Source: Gammaproteobacteria bacterium (GTDB taxonomy: Bacteria > Pseudomonadota > Gammaproteobacteria > SZUA-229). Taken from it: a DNA stretch of 51,555 nucleotides. Position numbers and translations under genes: made by a program. Shown piece after piece: positions 23,481-29,965 of this stretch. Below the pieces are notes generated by a model, which was given only the letters and a program-made list of their open reading frames with translations, ran no database searches and was not told where the DNA came from. Position 1 is the stretch's first letter, and each line of letters begins with the position of its first letter. The DNA lies in NCBI GenBank assembly GCA_026195255.1, contig JAPHSS010000032.1, positions 1 to 51,555 of the forward strand. The letters run 5' to 3'.

Positions 23481-24995
23481 ATGTGCGGTATAGTCGGTAT
23501 TGTTGGCCGAAGTCCTGTTAATCAGTTGTTATATGATGCGTTAATCATATTGCAGCACCGCGGGCAGGATGCTGCTGGCATTGTTACCAGTGAGGGCAAT
23601 AAGTTCCATTTACGTAAAAGTAATGGCTTAGTGAGTGATGTGTTTAATGCAGATAGCATGTCACAGTTATCAGGTAATATGGGCATAGGACATGTACGTT
23701 ACCCAACTGCCGGTTGCTCTTCAGTGGCCGAGTCTCAGCCTTTTTATGTGAACTCTCCTTATGGTATTGCCATAGCGCATAATGGTAATTTAACCAATGC
23801 TGAGGAATTAAAGGCGCAGTTATATAAAGATGATATGCGGCATATTAATACGGATTCAGATTCTGAAATTTTATTAAATATTTTTGCCCATGAATTACAG
23901 GCATTGAAAAAATTACAGGTAACATCGGAAGAAATTTTTAAAGCTGTTTCTGCTGTTCATAAGCGTTGCCTGGGTGGTTATGCCGTTGTCGCAACCATTG
24001 TGGGTAAAGGAGTGCTGGCATTTCGTGACCCAAATGGTATTCGCCCGGTTTGTTATGGTAAGCGTGAGTCGGAAACAGGTACCGAATATATTGTTGCATC
24101 TGAGAGCGTGGCATTACATGCATTAGGTTTTGAACTGGTACGTGATCTGAAACCAGGTGAAGCGATTTATATTGATATCGATGGTAATTTTTCAAGTAAG
24201 CAATGTGCAGAAAACCCTAAAAGTAATCCCTGTATCTTTGAGTATGTATATTTTGCACGCCCAGATTCTATTATTGATGATATTTCAGTTTATAAAGCCC
24301 GTTTGCGAATGGGTACAACACTGGTGCAAAAAATTCTACGTGAGAGACCGAATCACGATATAGATGTGGTTATACCTATTCCAGATACGAGTAGAACGGC
24401 GGCTCTGGATGTGGCTTATCACCTGGGTGTGAAGTATAGAGAAGGTTTTATTAAAAATAGATATATTGGCCGTACATTTATTATGCCTGGACAGGTTCAA
24501 CGAAAAAAATCAGTCCGCCAGAAATTAAATGCTATTGACCTGGAGTTTAAAGACAAAAATGTTCTGTTGGTAGATGACTCTATTGTTCGAGGAACAACAT
24601 CAAAGCAAATTATTCAAATGGCTAGAGAAGCGGGTGCTAAAAATGTATATATGGCATCTGCAGCGCCTCCGGTCAGATACCCTAATGTATATGGTATTGA
24701 TATGCCTTCACCAAAAGAGTTTGTAGCCCATGGGCGAAGCACTGAAGAGATCACCAAAGAAATTGGTGCAGACTGGTTAATTTATCAGGATTTAGATGAC
24801 TTAATTCACGCGGTTAAACAGGGTAATGAGAAAATCGATAGTTTTGATAGTTCCTGTTTTAGCGGTGAATACATTACCGGCGATATCGACAAAACCTATC
24901 TGAAAAACCTGGATGATTCGCGCTCAGATACAGCTAAATCTAAACGTGAGAATTCGAATAATTTGGCTGGAATTGACTTATACAGCAACCAGTAA
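23481..24995 (+). CDS. purF: Amidophosphoribosyltransferase
   Basis: PurF makes 5-phosphoribosylamine from PRPP and glutamine, the first committed step of purine synthesis. The 504-residue protein begins MCGIVGIVG, so Cys2 becomes the N-terminal glutaminase nucleophile with no propeptide, as in E. coli. The glutaminase core includes GQDAAGIVT and [12 protein letters not shown]. The PRPP loop is [15 protein letters not shown] at about residues 359-373. No PurR-type operator is evident upstream. The peptidoglycan-linked genes begin 8 bp after its stop. Confidence 0.97.
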
Positions 24996-25003
24996 AATAA
25001 TTA

Positions 25004-25963
25004 ATGTTTTTTATGGACTATAAAATTTTTCAGCAGTATTTGCCCGTGGCATTTCGTAAATTTACATATTTGCTATTACTCCTGTTTTCGACAGCGATCA
25101 TGGCAGGTGTGGATGATCTGAAGATTTTTAATGATGATAAAGAGTTGTTTTCGAAGGCAGTGAGCTTATCTACACAAAAAAAGTGGTTAGAGGCTGAGCC
25201 TATATACCGTGATTTATTAAAGCGTAATCAGTATTGGCCAGAACCAGGTAATAATTTAGCTATACTTTTGTTAAATACAGGCCGAACAGATGAAGCTATA
25301 ACAGTGCTTGAGCAAGCCGTAATTAGTTCGCCGGGTTATAGAATTACTCAGAAAAATCGATCTGAGTTATATGGCTATCTTGCAACACGAGCATACGATA
25401 AGGCGTTGGGTTCAGACCAGCAAAGTATTATGCCGGAACTGGAGTTAATTCAGACAATTTATCAACCTGTAAAAATAATAGAAAGAGAAGTAGAAAAAGA
25501 AGTAGAAAAAGTCGTTATAAAAGAAGTGCTTGTAGAAAAACCTCAGTTAGTCGAGCATCAGCAGGTAGTTGAGCCTCAAAAGGTTTCGGTAGGTGCGCCT
25601 CAAAATGACATCGGCAGACATATTAAGCAACAGTTGTCTGACTGGTCAAGAGCATGGTCTAAGGGGGATTTTGATAATTATATTAAATCCTATTCAACTA
25701 ATTTTGTGCCTTCTGATACGAGAAAGTCTTACGCCGAATGGAAAAATATAAGGCGAGCCCGTCTAAAATTTACCAAAGGCGTTAATGTTGAAATTGATCA
25801 GTTAAGGGTTTTTGTTGAAGGTCAGGGAAAACATGTATTAGTTGAATTTATACAGAACTATAGATCAGACTCATATAGCGACACCGTTTTAAAACAGATG
25901 TACATGCAAAATCAGCAAGATAATTGGCTGATACTGTCTGAAAGAACTATTAAAAAGTACTAA
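25004..25963 (+). CDS. Periplasmic protein with TPR-like repeats and a Csd6-type NTF2-like C-terminal domain
   Basis: This 319-residue protein has a signal-like hydrophobic stretch (about 22-35), a TPR-like helical pair (about 45-110, WLEAEPIYRDLLK and AITVLEQAV), a charged EVEKEVEK-type linker (about 162-190) and a C-terminal domain (about 205-317) like those fused to Csd6-type L,D-transpeptidases. That domain shares the pattern W..W…D…Y…YS..F…W…R, followed by F.Q.Y.SD, with the C-terminus of the next gene's product. It lacks any YkuD catalytic domain, so it may be a regulator, dimer partner or glycan-binding subunit of its neighbour. It follows purF by 8 bp. ATG 25013 is an alternative start. 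Confidence 0.7.
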   Translation: MFFMDYKIFQQYLPVAFRKFTYLLLLLFSTAIMAGVDDLKIFNDDKELFSKAVSLSTQKKWLEAEPIYRDLLKRNQYWPEPGNNLAILLLNTGRTDEAITVLEQAVISSPGYRITQKNRSELYGYLATRAYDKALGSDQQSIMPELELIQTIYQPVKIIEREVEKEVEKVVIKEVLVEKPQLVEHQQVVEPQKVSVGAPQNDIGRHIKQQLSDWSRAWSKGDFDNYIKSYSTNFVPSDTRKSYAEWKNIRRARLKFTKGVNVEIDQLRVFVEGQGKHVLVEFIQNYRSDSYSDTVLKQMYMQNQQDNWLILSERTIKKY

Positions 25964-25992
25964 ACTTAGGTAATTCAGTCTAAACGTGATTA

Positions 25993-27252
25993 GTGTTTAA
26001 ATTAATGAAATTTGCATCTATTATATTTACAGTATTTTATTCAGCAGCGATAACTCTTGTCGGGGCCGCTGTCTGCTCGAGTGCATGGGCAGTAGAAACG
26101 ACACTGGATAACTCTCACCCGGAAGTCCGATTGCTCGATGCTGTTCAGGATATTCAGTCTTCTGATTTAAACAGTGCCGAATCAAAGTTAAAAACGCTGG
26201 TCTCCGAAATGCCTGATTTTAAACTGGCGCAACTGGTTTATGCCGATGTTTTAATGTCTAAAGTGAAAGGTATTCATAATCCCGGTCCAGACTTAAACAA
26301 TAGTCTAGAAAAGTCTTTGCTGCTTACAGAAATAAAAAACCGCTATCAGGCTGTTAATGATGATCTCGTTAAAACTAATTTTCCTAAAGTTCTGGCGAAG
26401 TTAGATGCTTTTTATCGATATGTTATTGTTGTTGATCTAAGCAAATCTCGTTTATATTTGTTTGATAATACTCAGCCGTTACCCGTATTAATAGATGACT
26501 TTTTTATCTCTATGGGGCGCAGTGGAGCGGGTAAGGTTTCTGAAGGTGATTTAAAAACACCATTAGGTGTATATTTTATTCAGTCTTATATTGCACCTGA
26601 TCAACTGGCTGACAAGTATGGCGCAGGTGCTTATCCAATTAATTATCCAAATGCGTGGGATCGTTTAAATGGAAAAACAGGCCATGGTATATGGCTGCAT
26701 GGAACACGAAGTGGCACATATAATCGACCGCCATTAGCATCAGAAGGTTGTGTTGTATTACCGAATGAAGATCTGCTTAATATAGGTTCACACATTGATT
26801 TAAAAAGCACACCGGTATTAATCGGTGAAAATATTACATGGCTTGCTGAGAAGCAGTGGCTGTTACACAAAGATAACATCAGCCAACTGCATGAACAGTG
26901 GAAAAATGACTGGGAGAGTATGGATGTTGAAAGTTATTTACAACATTACTCTGACAGGTTTACCAATGGTAAAAAAGATATTTATAACTGGTCTGATCAT
27001 AAACGCAGAATAGCGAAACATAAAACTTTCGTAAAAGTAAATTTATCTAATGTGAGTTTGCTTCAGCATCCGAATGAAGATGTTATGGTGGCTACCTTTT
27101 TACAGACTTATGCCAGTGATAATTTCTCAAGCCAGAGCTGGAAACGTCAATACTGGAATAAGGAAAATGATGGTAAATGGCGAATTGTTTTTGAAGGTGA
27201 AATATCAATGCCGTTGAATTCTCAATTAGCTCAGAATCGTAAAAATGAATGA
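25993..27252 (+). CDS. Csd6/YafK-like L,D-transpeptidase (YkuD) with NTF2-like C-terminal domain
   Basis: This 419-residue exported protein carries an N-terminal signal or anchor (about 8-34), a helical TPR-like region (about 45-130), a YkuD catalytic domain (about 143-280) and an NTF2-like C-terminal domain (about 290-405). Catalytic residues are His236 in WLHGTRSG and Cys253 in ASEGCVVLPN. The Glu before Gly-Cys, in place of the usual His, is the YafK/Csd6 form. Csd6 of Helicobacter pylori is an L,D-carboxypeptidase affecting cell shape; E. coli YafK (DpaA) releases Lpp from peptidoglycan. Which activity applies here is unknown. Start GTG 25993; ATG 26005 is the alternative. Confidence 0.82.
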   Translation: MFKLMKFASIIFTVFYSAAITLVGAAVCSSAWAVETTLDNSHPEVRLLDAVQDIQSSDLNSAESKLKTLVSEMPDFKLAQLVYADVLMSKVKGIHNPGPDLNNSLEKSLLLTEIKNRYQAVNDDLVKTNFPKVLAKLDAFYRYVIVVDLSKSRLYLFDNTQPLPVLIDDFFISMGRSGAGKVSEGDLKTPLGVYFIQSYIAPDQLADKYGAGAYPINYPNAWDRLNGKTGHGIWLHGTRSGTYNRPPLASEGCVVLPNEDLLNIGSHIDLKSTPVLIGENITWLAEKQWLLHKDNISQLHEQWKNDWESMDVESYLQHYSDRFTNGKKDIYNWSDHKRRIAKHKTFVKVNLSNVSLLQHPNEDVMVATFLQTYASDNFSSQSWKRQYWNKENDGKWRIVFEGEISMPLNSQLAQNRKNE

Positions 27253-27334
27253 CTTAGTTTAGTAGGCGCTTTGCCACTGAAAAACCGAAGTCACGGCGCT
27301 AGATTTGATAAATGATTATTTTAAATGCGCACTC

Positions 27335-28222
27335 TCACTGTAACGCTGTTTTTGCTTTAGGGGGTTGCGGAATATTTACCCTGAGCCACTTAATCATATC
27401 AACCCATATCCTGCTTACTTCATGATTGCTGGGCATAATACCCGCATAGGGTAGTTCAATAGTGACAACTGGAATTTCCTCCTGTAAACCGGCGTAGTTA
27501 CCAAGTGATCCCGGATAGGTTCCTAATAATTTTAAATAAAGGTGACCAAGACGGGACGGCGGGCTGGGCGGCCCATCGTAATCAACAATTCCGTAAGGTG
27601 CGTGAACCGACACGATAGCATCCGGTTTAAAATCTTTAATTAGTTTAACTATCCACTGGGTTTCGGGTTCGCTCAATGGGCTCGGGCCGGGATAGCGCCT
27701 TGGGTCGCTATATGCACGATCCTTCCAGTATTCAAGGCTTGCTTGCGGACTGCCATTATTAGGAAAATTACGGTTTAAATCGACACCACTGGCATTTATT
27801 CGTTGAGATTTTTTCTGCAATAAACCATCCGGATTTACCAGTGGAGCCACTTTCCAGTGAAATAAACCACTATGGTATTTATCAAGAATTTTCATCCATT
27901 TAAACATAATAGTTACTGATGAATACTCATCTCCGTGAATACCGCCAAGCATAAGAATTCTTGCCTGTGGCTGTCTTTTGTTTAGTAGTGGGGGGTATTC
28001 TTTTATTAATAAGTTATTTTTATTATTAGATTGATGCTGAGACGGCATAAGCTCAAGTGAAATACATTCATTAAAAGTAACGCTGGATAGCTTATTAGCG
28101 ATCTTAATGCAGCTGTCATTCACCTGGTTTGGCTGTAACAGAGTGATGTTGTTCGTGTTTTGGCTATAAGCAGGAACTGATATTAAGAAAAGAAGTGTAA
28201 TCCGATAAAGGCGTGTTAGCAT
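27335..28222 (-). CDS. Exported M14-family zinc peptidase, probably a murein peptide amidase/carboxypeptidase
   Basis: The 295-residue protein has a signal peptide (about 1-20) and an M14 zinc carboxypeptidase fold. Zinc ligands are His96 and Glu99 in GGIHGDEYSS and His207 in VSVHAPYG. The substrate-binding Arg is in VDLNRNFPNN and the catalytic Glu256 is in VTIELPYAG. MpaA (gamma-D-glutamyl-diaminopimelate amidase) and Csd4 (D,L-carboxypeptidase acting on muropeptides) are the nearest named functions. The gene is convergent with the Csd6-like gene and divergent from the small L,D-transpeptidase, which supports a peptidoglycan role. The exact bond cleaved is inferred. Confidence 0.8.
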   Translation of the reverse strand: MLTRLYRITLLFLISVPAYSQNTNNITLLQPNQVNDSCIKIANKLSSVTFNECISLELMPSQHQSNNKNNLLIKEYPPLLNKRQPQARILMLGGIHGDEYSSVTIMFKWMKILDKYHSGLFHWKVAPLVNPDGLLQKKSQRINASGVDLNRNFPNNGSPQASLEYWKDRAYSDPRRYPGPSPLSEPETQWIVKLIKDFKPDAIVSVHAPYGIVDYDGPPSPPSRLGHLYLKLLGTYPGSLGNYAGLQEEIPVVTIELPYAGIMPSNHEVSRIWVDMIKWLRVNIPQPPKAKTALQ

Positions 28223-28253
28223 AGAAATTAGTCGTTTTGTCAGTTACTAAAGT

Positions 28254-28763
28254 ATGTCACATATAAGTTATATAATTATAAATATAGATCAGCAGCGTTT
28301 GTATTGCATGGATCAGGATGAAAATATTATTTCTGATTACCCCGTGTCGACTTCAAGCTTAGGTGTGGGTAATAAAAACGGCAGTTACCAGACCCCGTTA
28401 GGCATACATAGTATTGCACAGAAAATTGGTGATGGCTGCTCCATAAATGAAGTATTTGTGGGTCGGCAACCACTTGGTATATTAGATGACCTGAAAATGT
28501 CAAAAGAAAGCTTGCCTGATGATATTATTAGTAGTCGTATTCTCTGGTTGCAGGGTGAAGAAGCGGGTTTAAACAAAGGTAATGATAGTCAGGGTGATAT
28601 GATAGACAGTTATCAGCGTTATATTTATATTCATGGAACCTCAGAAGAAGATAAAATTGGCCAACCAGCATCCCATGGTTGCGTGAGAATGAAAAATAAA
28701 GATGTGATTGAGTTATTTAACCTTGTTGAAGAAGGTTGTAAAGTGATCATAAAAGAAAGCTAA
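28254..28763 (+). CDS. Small L,D-transpeptidase-family (YkuD) protein without a visible signal peptide
   Basis: The 169-residue protein is little more than a YkuD domain. The catalytic motif is complete: the His of YIHGTSEED and the Cys of ASHGCVRMKN, the canonical form. It begins SHISYIIINIDQQRLYCMDQ, matching the first strands of the domain with no room for a signal peptide; no upstream in-frame start adding one is apparent. Family enzymes act on periplasmic peptidoglycan, so either export is unconventional or the substrate is a cytoplasmic muropeptide. It lies 31 bp from the divergent M14 gene and 14 bp before metZ. Confidence 0.85.
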   Translation: MSHISYIIINIDQQRLYCMDQDENIISDYPVSTSSLGVGNKNGSYQTPLGIHSIAQKIGDGCSINEVFVGRQPLGILDDLKMSKESLPDDIISSRILWLQGEEAGLNKGNDSQGDMIDSYQRYIYIHGTSEEDKIGQPASHGCVRMKNKDVIELFNLVEEGCKVIIKES

Positions 28764-28777
28764 ACAGGTAAAGTAAA

Positions 28778-29965
28778 ATGAGCGATTATGACGATTTAGA
28801 AGCCGAGTGGTCTTTTGCGACTCAGGCGGTGAGAGCCGGGCAGGTGCGGACTTTGGAACAGGAGCATAGTGAGCCTATTTTTCCTACTTCGAGTTTTGTT
28901 TTTTCGTCAGCTGCTGAAGCAGCGGCACGATTTTCCGGTGAACAGCCAGGCAATATTTATTCGCGTTTTACAAATCCTACAGTAAGAACATTTGAGCAAC
29001 GTCTTGCTCGTATGGAAGGTGGTGAATGTTGTGTTGCTACCGCATCTGGAATGTCGGCTATTCTCGCAACCTGTCTGGGTATTTTAAAAACAGGTGATCA
29101 TATTGTTTCATCACGCAGTATATTTGGCACAACAACAGTGTTATTCACAAACTTTATGGCCAAACTGGGAATTGAAACTACCTTTGTTGATCTGTCAGAT
29201 CTAACAGGCTGGGAACAGGCAATACAGGCAAATACACGTTTATTGTTTTTAGAAACACCTTCAAATCCATTAACAGAACTGGTTGATATAGCGGCACTTG
29301 CAAATATAACTCATAAGCATGATTGTCTGTTGGCGGTTGATAATTGTTTAGCAACACCTGCTTTGCAAAAACCTATAAGTTTAGGTGCTGATATTGTTAT
29401 TCATTCAGCAACTAAATATATAGATGGGCAGGGGCGTTGCATGGGTGGAGCCGTTGTTGGAACTGAGGACGTTGTTGGTACAGATGTTTATGCGTTTTTA
29501 CGAACTGCAGGGCCAACAATGAGTGCCTTTAATGCCTGGGTATTTTTAAAAGGCCTGGAAACACTTGATATCAGAATGAAGGCTCATAGTACAAGTGCGC
29601 TGGAGCTCGCAAGGTGGTTAGAGTTACAACCGCAGGTAGCTCGAGTTTATTACCCCGGGCTTGAGTCTCATCCACAGCACGAGTTGGCTAAACAACAGCA
29701 ATCAGGCTTTGGTGGTTTATTGTCATTTGAGCTTAAAGGTGGCAAAGACGATGGCTGGAAATTAATCGATGCCACACAAATATGTTCTATTACGGCTAAT
29801 TTAGGTGACACAAAAACCACCATTACTCATCCAGCGACAACAACTCATGGTCGCTTAACACCGGAACAGCGACAGCAATCAGGTATAGCTGATGGTTTAA
29901 TTCGGCTGGCTGTAGGGCTGGAAGATATTGAAGATATTAAGAAAGACCTGGCACGTGGTATGTGA
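28778..29965 (+). CDS. metZ: O-succinylhomoserine sulfhydrylase
   Basis: This PLP enzyme makes homocysteine directly from O-succinylhomoserine and sulfide. The product has 395 residues. The Schiff-base Lys is in the Cys/Met-metabolism signature SATKYIDGQGRCMGG (near residue 212), and NIYSRFTNPTVRTFE and LFLETPSNPL are further family motifs. MetZ rather than MetB or MetC is favoured by the sequence DYDDLEAEWSFATQAVRAGQ at the N-terminus and by position after purF, as in Pseudomonas, although four murein-related genes now separate purF from metZ. No MetJ box is seen. Confidence 0.92.
   Translation: MSDYDDLEAEWSFATQAVRAGQVRTLEQEHSEPIFPTSSFVFSSAAEAAARFSGEQPGNIYSRFTNPTVRTFEQRLARMEGGECCVATASGMSAILATCLGILKTGDHIVSSRSIFGTTTVLFTNFMAKLGIETTFVDLSDLTGWEQAIQANTRLLFLETPSNPLTELVDIAALANITHKHDCLLAVDNCLATPALQKPISLGADIVIHSATKYIDGQGRCMGGAVVGTEDVVGTDVYAFLRTAGPTMSAFNAWVFLKGLETLDIRMKAHSTSALELARWLELQPQVARVYYPGLESHPQHELAKQQQSGFGGLLSFELKGGKDDGWKLIDATQICSITANLGDTKTTITHPATTTHGRLTPEQRQQSGIADGLIRLAVGLEDIEDIKKDLARGM

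What the first reader, a model, noticed from the sequence alone, without database searches (positions are those of the whole stretch)
25004..28763. Compact peptidoglycan-tailoring cluster inserted between purF and metZ
Four neighbouring genes look devoted to murein peptides: an NTF2-domain periplasmic protein, a Csd6/YafK-like L,D-transpeptidase, an M14 carboxypeptidase/amidase and a second YkuD enzyme. Motifs are seen directly. In Helicobacter pylori, Csd4 (M14) and Csd6 (YkuD with NTF2-like domain) act in sequence to shape the cell, which suggests a parallel system here. That it forms one functional unit is inference.
Basis: partly seen in the sequence, partly recalled or inferred. Interest (0 to 1): 0.72.

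Follow-up and report, generated by a model that had tools for sequence, protein, structure and literature searches.

The report
Cell-wall trimming module with TPR partner
Three neighbouring genes encode a periplasmic kit that probably shortens cell-wall peptides: a Csd6-like enzyme, a second peptidase, and an apparently undescribed partner protein without an enzyme domain that may tell the enzyme where on the wall to cut; the fourth gene is a separate recycling enzyme that was probably there before.

Summary
The four genes are real and the domain calls largely hold, but they are not one four-gene unit. Genes 1-3 form a cassette with export-like N-termini. Gene 1 is a non-catalytic TPR + Csd6-type NTF2 protein. 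Gene 2 is a Csd6/Pgp2/Bd1075-type protein, predicted L,D-carboxypeptidase. Gene 3, on the opposite strand, is an MpaA-type M14 peptidase. Gene 4 is a leaderless ElsL-like YkuD protein that sits beside metZ with or without the cassette; the genome has Mpl but no LdcA or VanY match, so murein recycling is its likely job.

The core is the gene 1-gene 2 pair: gene 1 is directly upstream in 72 of 78 evaluable loci and in 17 of 20 hand-picked loci of other groups. Gene 3 is optional. The cassette occurs in two unrelated contexts. Five NTF2 pocket positions needed for Pgp2 function are kept in gene 1 (one as Arg), each in 72-77 of 77 proteins.

Most likely mechanism (inferred): gene 1 docks the enzyme on peptidoglycan, gene 2 trims tetra- to tripeptide, gene 3 tri- to dipeptide. 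I found no paper on the TPR-NTF2 partner. New variant of a known kind.

The parts
25004..25963 (+). Gene 1: TPR + Csd6-type NTF2 protein with export-like N-terminus, no catalytic domain found; proposed peptidoglycan-docking partner of gene 2
25993..27252 (+). Gene 2: YkuD + NTF2 protein of the Csd6/Pgp2/Bd1075 kind with export-like N-terminus; predicted L,D-carboxypeptidase (H236, C253; V255 where most L,D-transpeptidases have Arg)
27335..28222 (-). Gene 3: MpaA-type M14 zinc peptidase with export-like N-terminus, convergent to gene 2; predicted to cut the gamma-D-Glu-mDAP bond (tri- to dipeptide)
28254..28763 (+). Gene 4: leaderless ElsL-like YkuD protein, tightly linked to metZ; predicted cytoplasmic recycling L,D-carboxypeptidase; resident gene, not part of the cassette
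23481..24995 (+). purF, left flank (8 nt before gene 1)
28778..29965 (+). metZ, right flank (14 nt after gene 4)

Best explanation
Genes 1-3 are a periplasmic peptide-stem trimming module. Gene 2 removes the terminal D-Ala from tetrapeptide stems (L,D-carboxypeptidase). Gene 3 then removes meso-DAP from the tripeptide (MpaA-type cut at gamma-D-Glu-mDAP). Gene 1 has no enzyme domain; it keeps the NTF2 pocket that in Pgp2 binds peptidoglycan and adds a TPR surface, so it most likely works as a docking or positioning partner that decides where or on which strands gene 2 trims. Gene 4 is a separate cytoplasmic ElsL-type L,D-carboxypeptidase that makes tripeptide for Mpl-dependent recycling. Shown here: domains, hydrophobic N-termini, residue conservation, gene linkage. 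Inferred: export, activities, physical interaction, positioning, effect on cell shape.
For: Gene 2: PDB hits by sequence; predicted fold Z 30.8 (rmsd 1.9, 263 aligned) to Bd1075, 26.9 to Csd6, 25.9 to Pgp2. His and Cys kept in 80 of 80. The Cys+2 residue is never Arg (V 51, I 12, A 7, S 6, T 4 of 80); PMC8938487 gives Arg in most transpeptidases, Val in Bd1075, Ala in Csd6/Pgp2 (passages). Gene 1 pocket: Pgp2 Y233, F242, K257, K307, E324 (PMC8038945, abstract and passages) map by hand to Y226, F234, R250, K297, E313, kept as Y 76, F 72 (+4 Y), R 76, K 77, E 77 of 77. Foldseek's best PDB hits to the gene 1 model are Bd1075 and Csd6. Gene 3: MpaA motifs; H96, E99, H207, E256 invariant in 22 of 22; next to gene 2, convergent, in 21 of 74 evaluable loci and 14 of 16 evaluable panel genomes. 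Distance-matrix correlations 0.54-0.73, 0 of 999 permutations as high. Two contexts for the cassette and a third for the pair. Gene 4: ElsL model 145.5 bits; Mpl 720 bits, LdcA 0 and VanY 0 in this genome.
Against: No biochemical or phenotypic data. The activity of gene 2 is inferred from relatives at 24-30% identity. Gene 3 is absent next to gene 2 in 53 of 74 evaluable loci, some gammaproteobacterial ones among them, and was found in 0 of 20 regions of other groups, so it is optional. Presence within the home family follows genus, so the panel co-occurrence (Fisher p 1e-9) may reflect few events. Distance correlations also arise from shared ancestry alone. Gene 1 occurs without gene 2 in 3 of 20 fetched regions. 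Pgp2 Y233F still bound peptidoglycan, so not each pocket residue is needed for binding. By VIA-align the gene 1 NTF2 domain is not clearly closer to Csd6 than to unrelated NTF2 proteins. Gene 4 falls below NCBI's ElsL cut-off (145.5 against 270). Export was judged by hydropathy only. No complex was modelled.
Confidence: 0.6

Rival explanations
1. One four-gene muropeptide unit including gene 4: periplasmic trimming plus cytoplasmic recycling co-evolved as a single cluster.
For: Gene 4 is the divergent neighbour of gene 3 in 16 of 17 cassettes of the panel that have gene 3.
Against: Gene 4 keeps its place beside metZ in 13 of 14 fetched cassette-less loci of the same family; in G046 the cassette is elsewhere; only 4 of 80 loci show gene 4 within the DNA held, all in the purF-metZ arrangement of the home family.
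Confidence: 0.1
2. Gene 2 is a true L,D-transpeptidase that makes 3-3 cross-links or attaches lipoproteins, with gene 1 as chaperone.
For: YkuD domain above the Pfam cut-off; the only other YkuD match in this genome is leaderless gene 4.
Against: The Cys+2 Arg is missing in 80 of 80; closest relatives by sequence and fold are Bd1075, Csd6 and Pgp2; long YkuD proteins are rarer in family genomes with the cassette (1 of 17 against 8 of 20, p 0.023, not corrected for kinship, counted by hand, test).
Confidence: 0.12
3. Gene 1 is not a partner of gene 2 but an independent envelope protein that is linked through operon position only.
For: Gene 1-like proteins occur without gene 2 in 3 of 20 fetched regions; in the Neptuniibacter-type loci the TPR-NTF2 gene is not directly upstream.
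Against: 72 of 78 adjacency across different gene contexts; the same NTF2 pocket residues in both proteins.
Confidence: 0.2
4. Gene 3 acts on freed stem peptides in the periplasm (scavenging of DAP) rather than on the sacculus.
For: The closest known relative, MpaA, acts on free tripeptide in recycling (recalled); this is the only MpaA-type match in the genome.
Against: Export-like N-terminus, linkage to a Csd6-type gene; in the 58-genome panel it is found without Cds6_C only in G047, where the His of the VHAP motif (zinc ligand by analogy, recalled) is Lys.
Confidence: 0.25

Closest known systems
Csd6 (H. pylori) / Pgp2 (C. jejuni) / Bd1075 (B. bacteriovorus) L,D-carboxypeptidases
   Same: YkuD + NTF2 architecture, catalytic His/Cys, non-Arg Cys+2, pocket residues, predicted fold
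   Different: Extra N-terminal helices (43-121) with a weak TPR-like signal, and a linked non-catalytic TPR-NTF2 protein; no such partner turned up in the passages I read on these three
Csd4 (H. pylori) / Pgp1 (C. jejuni)
   Same: M14 family; predicted cut of the same tripeptide bond; gene next to the Csd6-type gene, as PMC3961634 reports for pgp1-pgp2 in Nitratiruptor, Nautilia, Desulfococcus and Persephonella (section 20 read)
   Different: Gene 3 is of the MpaA lineage (75-76 bits to MpaA, 11.7 bits to 4wcm, recalled to be Csd4) and shorter (295 aa against a 439-residue chain)
MpaA murein tripeptide amidase
   Same: HGDE, DLNRNFP, PGSxG and the conserved Glu
   Different: Export-like N-terminus; below the NCBI MpaA cut-off (78.7 against 157 bits)
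ElsL (Acinetobacter) cytoplasmic L,D-carboxypeptidase
   Same: Gene 4: leaderless, 169 aa, YkuD, no LdcA in the genome
   Different: Below the NCBI ElsL cut-off; linked to metZ

Membership tests
Csd6/Pgp2/Bd1075 L,D-carboxypeptidases (gene 2) | YkuD domain followed by Csd6-type NTF2 domain | tested here: met
   (56 of 56 members of the alignment match both models)
Csd6/Pgp2/Bd1075 L,D-carboxypeptidases (gene 2) | Catalytic His and Cys with non-Arg at Cys+2 | tested here: met
   80 of 80
Csd6/Pgp2/Bd1075 L,D-carboxypeptidases (gene 2) | NTF2 pocket residues Y233, F242, K257, K307, E324 (Pgp2 numbering) | tested here: met
   Window has all five; Y 77, F 64 (+15 Y), K 77, K 75, E 79 of 80; mapping by hand
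Csd6/Pgp2/Bd1075 L,D-carboxypeptidases (gene 2) | Tetra- to tripeptide activity | not testable with these tools
   Needs enzyme assay
Csd4/Pgp1 (gene 3) | Sequence relationship closer than to other M14 | tested here: not met
   MpaA 75-76 bits, 4wcm (recalled to be Csd4) 11.7 bits, E 0.95
MpaA (gene 3) | M14 HxxE, later His and Glu, DLNRNFP and PGSxG motifs | tested here: met
   (H96, E99, H207, E256 in 22 of 22)
MpaA (gene 3) | NCBIfam equivalog cut-off 157 bits | tested here: not met
   78.7 bits
MpaA (gene 3) | Cytoplasmic location (recalled) | tested here: inconclusive
   Signal-like N-terminus, mean hydropathy 2.07 over 12 residues against 1.53 (purF) and 1.12 (metZ) speaks against it; no dedicated signal-peptide predictor was run
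ElsL (gene 4) | Leaderless YkuD protein of 105-200 aa (definition in PMC8649774, passages) | tested here: met
   169 aa, N-terminal hydropathy 0.94; the paper's own predictors were not run
ElsL (gene 4) | NCBIfam NF040925 cut-off 270 bits | tested here: not met
   145.5 bits
ElsL (gene 4) | Genome lacks the other known recycling L,D-carboxypeptidase families, and has Mpl | tested here: met
   LdcA (PF02016) 0, VanY (PF02557) 0, Mpl 720 bits; that LdcV belongs to the VanY family is recalled

The most novel reading that the evidence does not exclude
The TPR-NTF2 protein is an ancient, widespread, catalytically empty partner of Csd6-type L,D-carboxypeptidases across Pseudomonadota: a periplasmic adaptor that reads peptidoglycan with the same pocket as the enzyme and, through its TPR surface, places stem trimming at chosen wall sites. 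It would be the missing targeting factor for localised wall trimming, and the gammaproteobacterial form recruits an exported MpaA-type peptidase as second cutter, independently of Csd4/Pgp1.
Probability: 0.35. Interest if true: 0.75.

Novelty: new variant of a known kind. Interest (0 to 1): 0.52.

Why it matters
Stem-trimming carboxypeptidases shape curved and helical bacteria, but PMC8938487 states that no mechanistic basis is known for targeting a protein to one lateral side-wall (passages), and PMC3961634 reports that Pgp1 plus Pgp2 were not enough to reshape E. coli, so other proteins for their localization or for preparing the substrate are needed (passages). A conserved non-catalytic partner with the same wall-binding pocket is a concrete candidate that can be tested in non-pathogenic, culturable hosts.

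Tried and rejected
Bactofilin link: a bactofilin is in 46 of 58 genomes, with or without the cassette, so no association.

Plasmid-borne cassette: no match of gene 2 in 72,556 plasmid records at E 1e-5. I did not search the flanks for transposases or integrases.

RNA feature: no Rfam match in the window at gathering thresholds.

Remnants of genes 1-3 in cassette-less relatives: profiles A2 and A3 hit nothing in L055-L072; the 14 weak A1 hits there are YkuD proteins, 12 of them gene 4 itself and the other two L070 and L071.

Gene 1 as gene 2 minus its catalytic domain: the NTF2 halves align strongly (E 2e-24), the N-terminal halves only weakly (one repeat, probability 58%, E 1e-4), though 68 of 78 and 16 of 19 gene 1 proteins hit by profile A1 are also hit in its N-terminal part. 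One of 56 gene 2 proteins matches a Pfam TPR model. A shared TPR-like chassis is possible, not shown.

Literature: no paper on the TPR-NTF2 partner in the searches (open-licence PMC papers only; of 39 papers and 144 only 20 and 15 were listed).

Not tested: whether Campylobacter, Helicobacter or Bdellovibrio encode a gene 1; a complex model of genes 1 and 2; a dedicated signal-peptide predictor.

Rows set aside: 2 of 80 loci too short upstream and 6 of 80 too short downstream to score. L070 and L071 left out of the gene 4 profile. Cassette-less family genomes G010, G011, G030, G033, G035 and G036 were not fetched; G011 and G030 have no ElsL-sized YkuD match at all, so ElsL is not universal. 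A first count by ORF ends gave gene 1 adjacent in 63 of 78; over-extended starts of gene 2 explain the rise to 72 when its start is taken from the profile. Minus-strand rows of alignments A1-A3 lack their first residue because I printed those ends wrongly; A4-A6 are not affected.
Full report
What is there. The window is contig C52 of a 3.56 Mb, 99.9% complete genome; its closest named relatives by gene 2 are uncultured Gammaproteobacteria MAGs, N1D-Bin_4 (96%) and SZUA-229 (70%). Between purF and metZ lie four ORFs. Gene 1 (319 aa) has a hydrophobic N-terminus, TPR repeats, a disordered linker and a Cds6_C NTF2 domain. Gene 2 (419 aa) has a hydrophobic N-terminus, four further N-terminal helices, a YkuD domain and a Cds6_C domain. 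Gene 3 (295 aa, opposite strand) is an M14 peptidase with a hydrophobic N-terminus. Gene 4 (169 aa) is a leaderless YkuD protein. The best 12-residue hydropathy near the N-terminus is 2.53, 2.04, 2.07 and 0.94 for genes 1-4, with purF 1.53 and metZ 1.12 as cytoplasmic yardsticks. Over orthologues it is 2.08-3.06 for gene 1 (14 proteins, one of them at 0.8, whose start is probably miscalled), 1.99-3.03 for gene 2 (16), 1.41-2.81 for gene 3 (17) and -0.13 to 1.62 for gene 4 (34, one of them an outlier at 2.77). No dedicated signal-peptide predictor was run.

Gene 2 is of the Csd6 type. By sequence its best PDB neighbours are Bd1075 (7o21), Csd6 (4xzz) and Pgp2 (6xj6). The predicted model (mean pLDDT 87.9) aligns to them at Z 30.8, 26.9 and 25.9 over 263-266 residues, while the next entry, B. 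subtilis YkuD, is at 17.5 over 111. In 80 homologues the catalytic His and Cys are invariant and the residue two after the Cys is never Arg. PMC8938487 (passages) says this residue is Arg in most L,D-transpeptidases, Val in Bd1075 and Ala in Csd6/Pgp2. Gene 2 has Val.

Gene 1 is the surprise. Cds6_C occurs in 18 of 58 genomes searched (own included; 0 of 14 control genomes), always in two copies; in 17 of 18 both lie on one contig about 1.2-1.3 kb apart, and in G025 they lie on two contigs. Five of the six exceptions, Neptuniibacter-type loci (L090, L093-L095, L126), carry a gene 1-like gene elsewhere in the locus; L096 has none in its short contig. In a sample of 249 genomes of the phylum, 109 have Cds6_C, and at least 31 other genomes show two listed matches 1.23-1.35 kb apart (my count by eye of a list the tool had cut). 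Of 20 regions that I picked from that sample, 17 have gene 1 directly upstream of gene 2 and 3 have gene 1 without gene 2. Eight of the 20 already showed two Cds6_C matches when picked; of the other 12, 9 had the pair.

The gene 1 pocket. PMC8038945 (abstract and passages) shows that Pgp2 variants at Y233, F242, K257, K307 and E324 fail to restore helical shape, and that K307A weakens peptidoglycan binding, while Y233F alone did not disrupt binding. Using the printed alignments (for Pgp2 to gene 2, anchored on the K307A chain; for gene 2 to gene 1; mapped by hand), these positions are Y315, F323, K337, K384, E401 in gene 2 and Y226, F234, R250, K297, E313 in gene 1. In 77 gene 1 proteins: Y 76, F 72 (+4 Y), R 76, K 77, E 77. 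In 80 gene 2 proteins: Y 77, F 64 (+15 Y), K 77, K 75, E 79. The non-catalytic protein thus keeps the pocket about as strictly as the enzyme does. Foldseek puts Bd1075 and Csd6 first for the gene 1 model (mean pLDDT 81.8, pTM 0.54). Under VIA-align, Csd6 leads at Z 16.3, but unrelated NTF2 proteins follow at 15 and Bd1075 is at 14.3, so fold alone does not single out the family; sequence does.

Gene 3. It has the MpaA motifs and aligns to MpaA structures. With the wider profile MpaA scores 75-76 bits and 4wcm, which I recall to be H. pylori Csd4, 11.7 bits. It is the only MpaA-type match in this genome and falls below NCBI's MpaA cut-off. H96, E99, H207 and E256 are invariant in 22 of 22. Among 58 genomes it is present in 18, in 17 of them with Cds6_C. 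The two mismatches are G013 (74% complete; other genes follow gene 2) and G047 (M14 without Cds6_C). In G047 the His equivalent to H207 is Lys, as if activity was lost without the partner; this is one case. In the 80 loci gene 3 follows gene 2 convergently in 21 of 74 evaluable ones, all labelled as gammaproteobacterial groups or unspecified Proteobacteria; other gammaproteobacterial loci, such as L092 and the Neptuniibacter ones, lack it. None of the 20 regions has it.

Contexts. (i) Home family: purF-[1-2-3]-elsL-metZ. Of 16 evaluable panel genomes (own included; G003 and G032 set aside for contig breaks), gene 3 is the next gene after gene 2 in 14; in G021 about 880 nt with a 135-aa ORF lie between them, and G013 has no gene 3. 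(ii) Other Gammaproteobacteria: [1-2-3] near a BirA-like protein, type III pantothenate kinase and a SPOR protein on one side and chorismate lyase, RecG and RidA-like genes on the other (10-15 loci each; one example of each named by Pfam). (iii) Mostly betaproteobacterial loci: [1-2] near CysS (31 loci), a cyclophilin (29) and a metallophosphatase (32) which I would call LpxH (recalled), often with metZ and purF a few kb away on the other strand. Distances of genes 1, 2 and 3 over the 22 loci with all three plus the window correlate at 0.67 (1-2), 0.54 (1-3) and 0.73 (2-3), with 0 of 999 permutations as high; shared ancestry alone can give this.

Gene 4. I fetched 14 of the 20 cassette-less genomes of the same family: it is beside metZ in 13 (the 14th is at a contig edge), with purF 309-1816 nt away in 10. 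In the panel it is the divergent neighbour of gene 3 in 16 of 17 cassettes that have gene 3, but in G046 it lies on another contig. ElsL is described as a cytoplasmic recycling L,D-carboxypeptidase in a bacterium without LdcA (PMC8649774, passages). This genome has Mpl at 720 bits, no LdcA (1 of 58 genomes has one) and no VanY match (that LdcV belongs to that family is recalled). Gene 4 scores 145.5 bits to the ElsL model, below its strict cut-off of 270. G011 and G030 have no ElsL-sized YkuD protein, so the gene can be lost or missed.

How it likely works. Gene 2 trims tetra- to tripeptide and gene 3 tri- to dipeptide, as reported for Pgp2 and Pgp1 (PMC3961634, passages and section 20; PMC3310789, passages). 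Gene 1 binds peptidoglycan through its NTF2 pocket and positions or regulates gene 2 through its TPR part. In Bd1075 the NTF2 domain itself does the targeting (PMC8938487, passages), so a second NTF2 protein without an enzyme fits a positioning role. Activities, binding and shape effects are inference.

What is known and what is not. That pgp1 and pgp2 homologues can be neighbours is in print for Nitratiruptor, Nautilia, Desulfococcus and Persephonella. I found no paper on the TPR-NTF2 partner (searches; open-licence papers only). Hence: a new variant of a known kind, with an apparently undescribed and highly conserved partner as the main interest.

Limits. Presence in the home family follows genus, so few independent gains or losses are sampled. 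Whether Campylobacter, Helicobacter and Bdellovibrio have a gene 1 was not tested. The cell shape of this organism is unknown.

Noticed in passing
L054:5428-6375 (genome G047): Orphan M14 homologue in a genome without Cds6_C has Lys in place of the His of the VHAP motif (zinc ligand by analogy, recalled), as if degenerating without the carboxypeptidase.
   Followed up: partly
Home family, 37 genomes: Long YkuD proteins (open frames of 340 aa or more other than gene 2, likely L,D-transpeptidases) occur in 1 of 17 genomes with the cassette and 8 of 20 without (Fisher p 0.023; counted by hand, not corrected for kinship): trimming and 3-3 cross-linking may exclude each other.
   Followed up: partly
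Genomes of unnamed family f49, e.g. G073:C8:17755-18066, G163:C4:1267827-1268144: Beside the gene 1-gene 2 pair these genomes carry extra Cds6_C proteins with open frames of about 575-680 aa elsewhere.
   Followed up: no
L090, L093, L094, L095, L126: Neptuniibacter-type loci have gene 2 with TPR-NTF2-like genes downstream, a strong one on the other strand in four of the five, instead of directly upstream.
   Followed up: no
window:28222-28254: Divergent genes 3 and 4 are only 31 nt apart; by first-start ORF ends the gap is 19-74 nt in 13 of 15 relatives (one overlap, one 255 nt), so at least one promoter probably lies inside a coding sequence.
   Followed up: no
L060:6620-7291 and similar spots in relatives: Cassette-less relatives carry other genes between purF and elsL, e.g. 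a SIMPL-domain protein in L060, so this spot varies.
   Followed up: partly
L045 / L075 (genome G021): About 880 nt with a 135-aa ORF separate genes 2 and 3 here, unlike in the other panel genomes.
   Followed up: no
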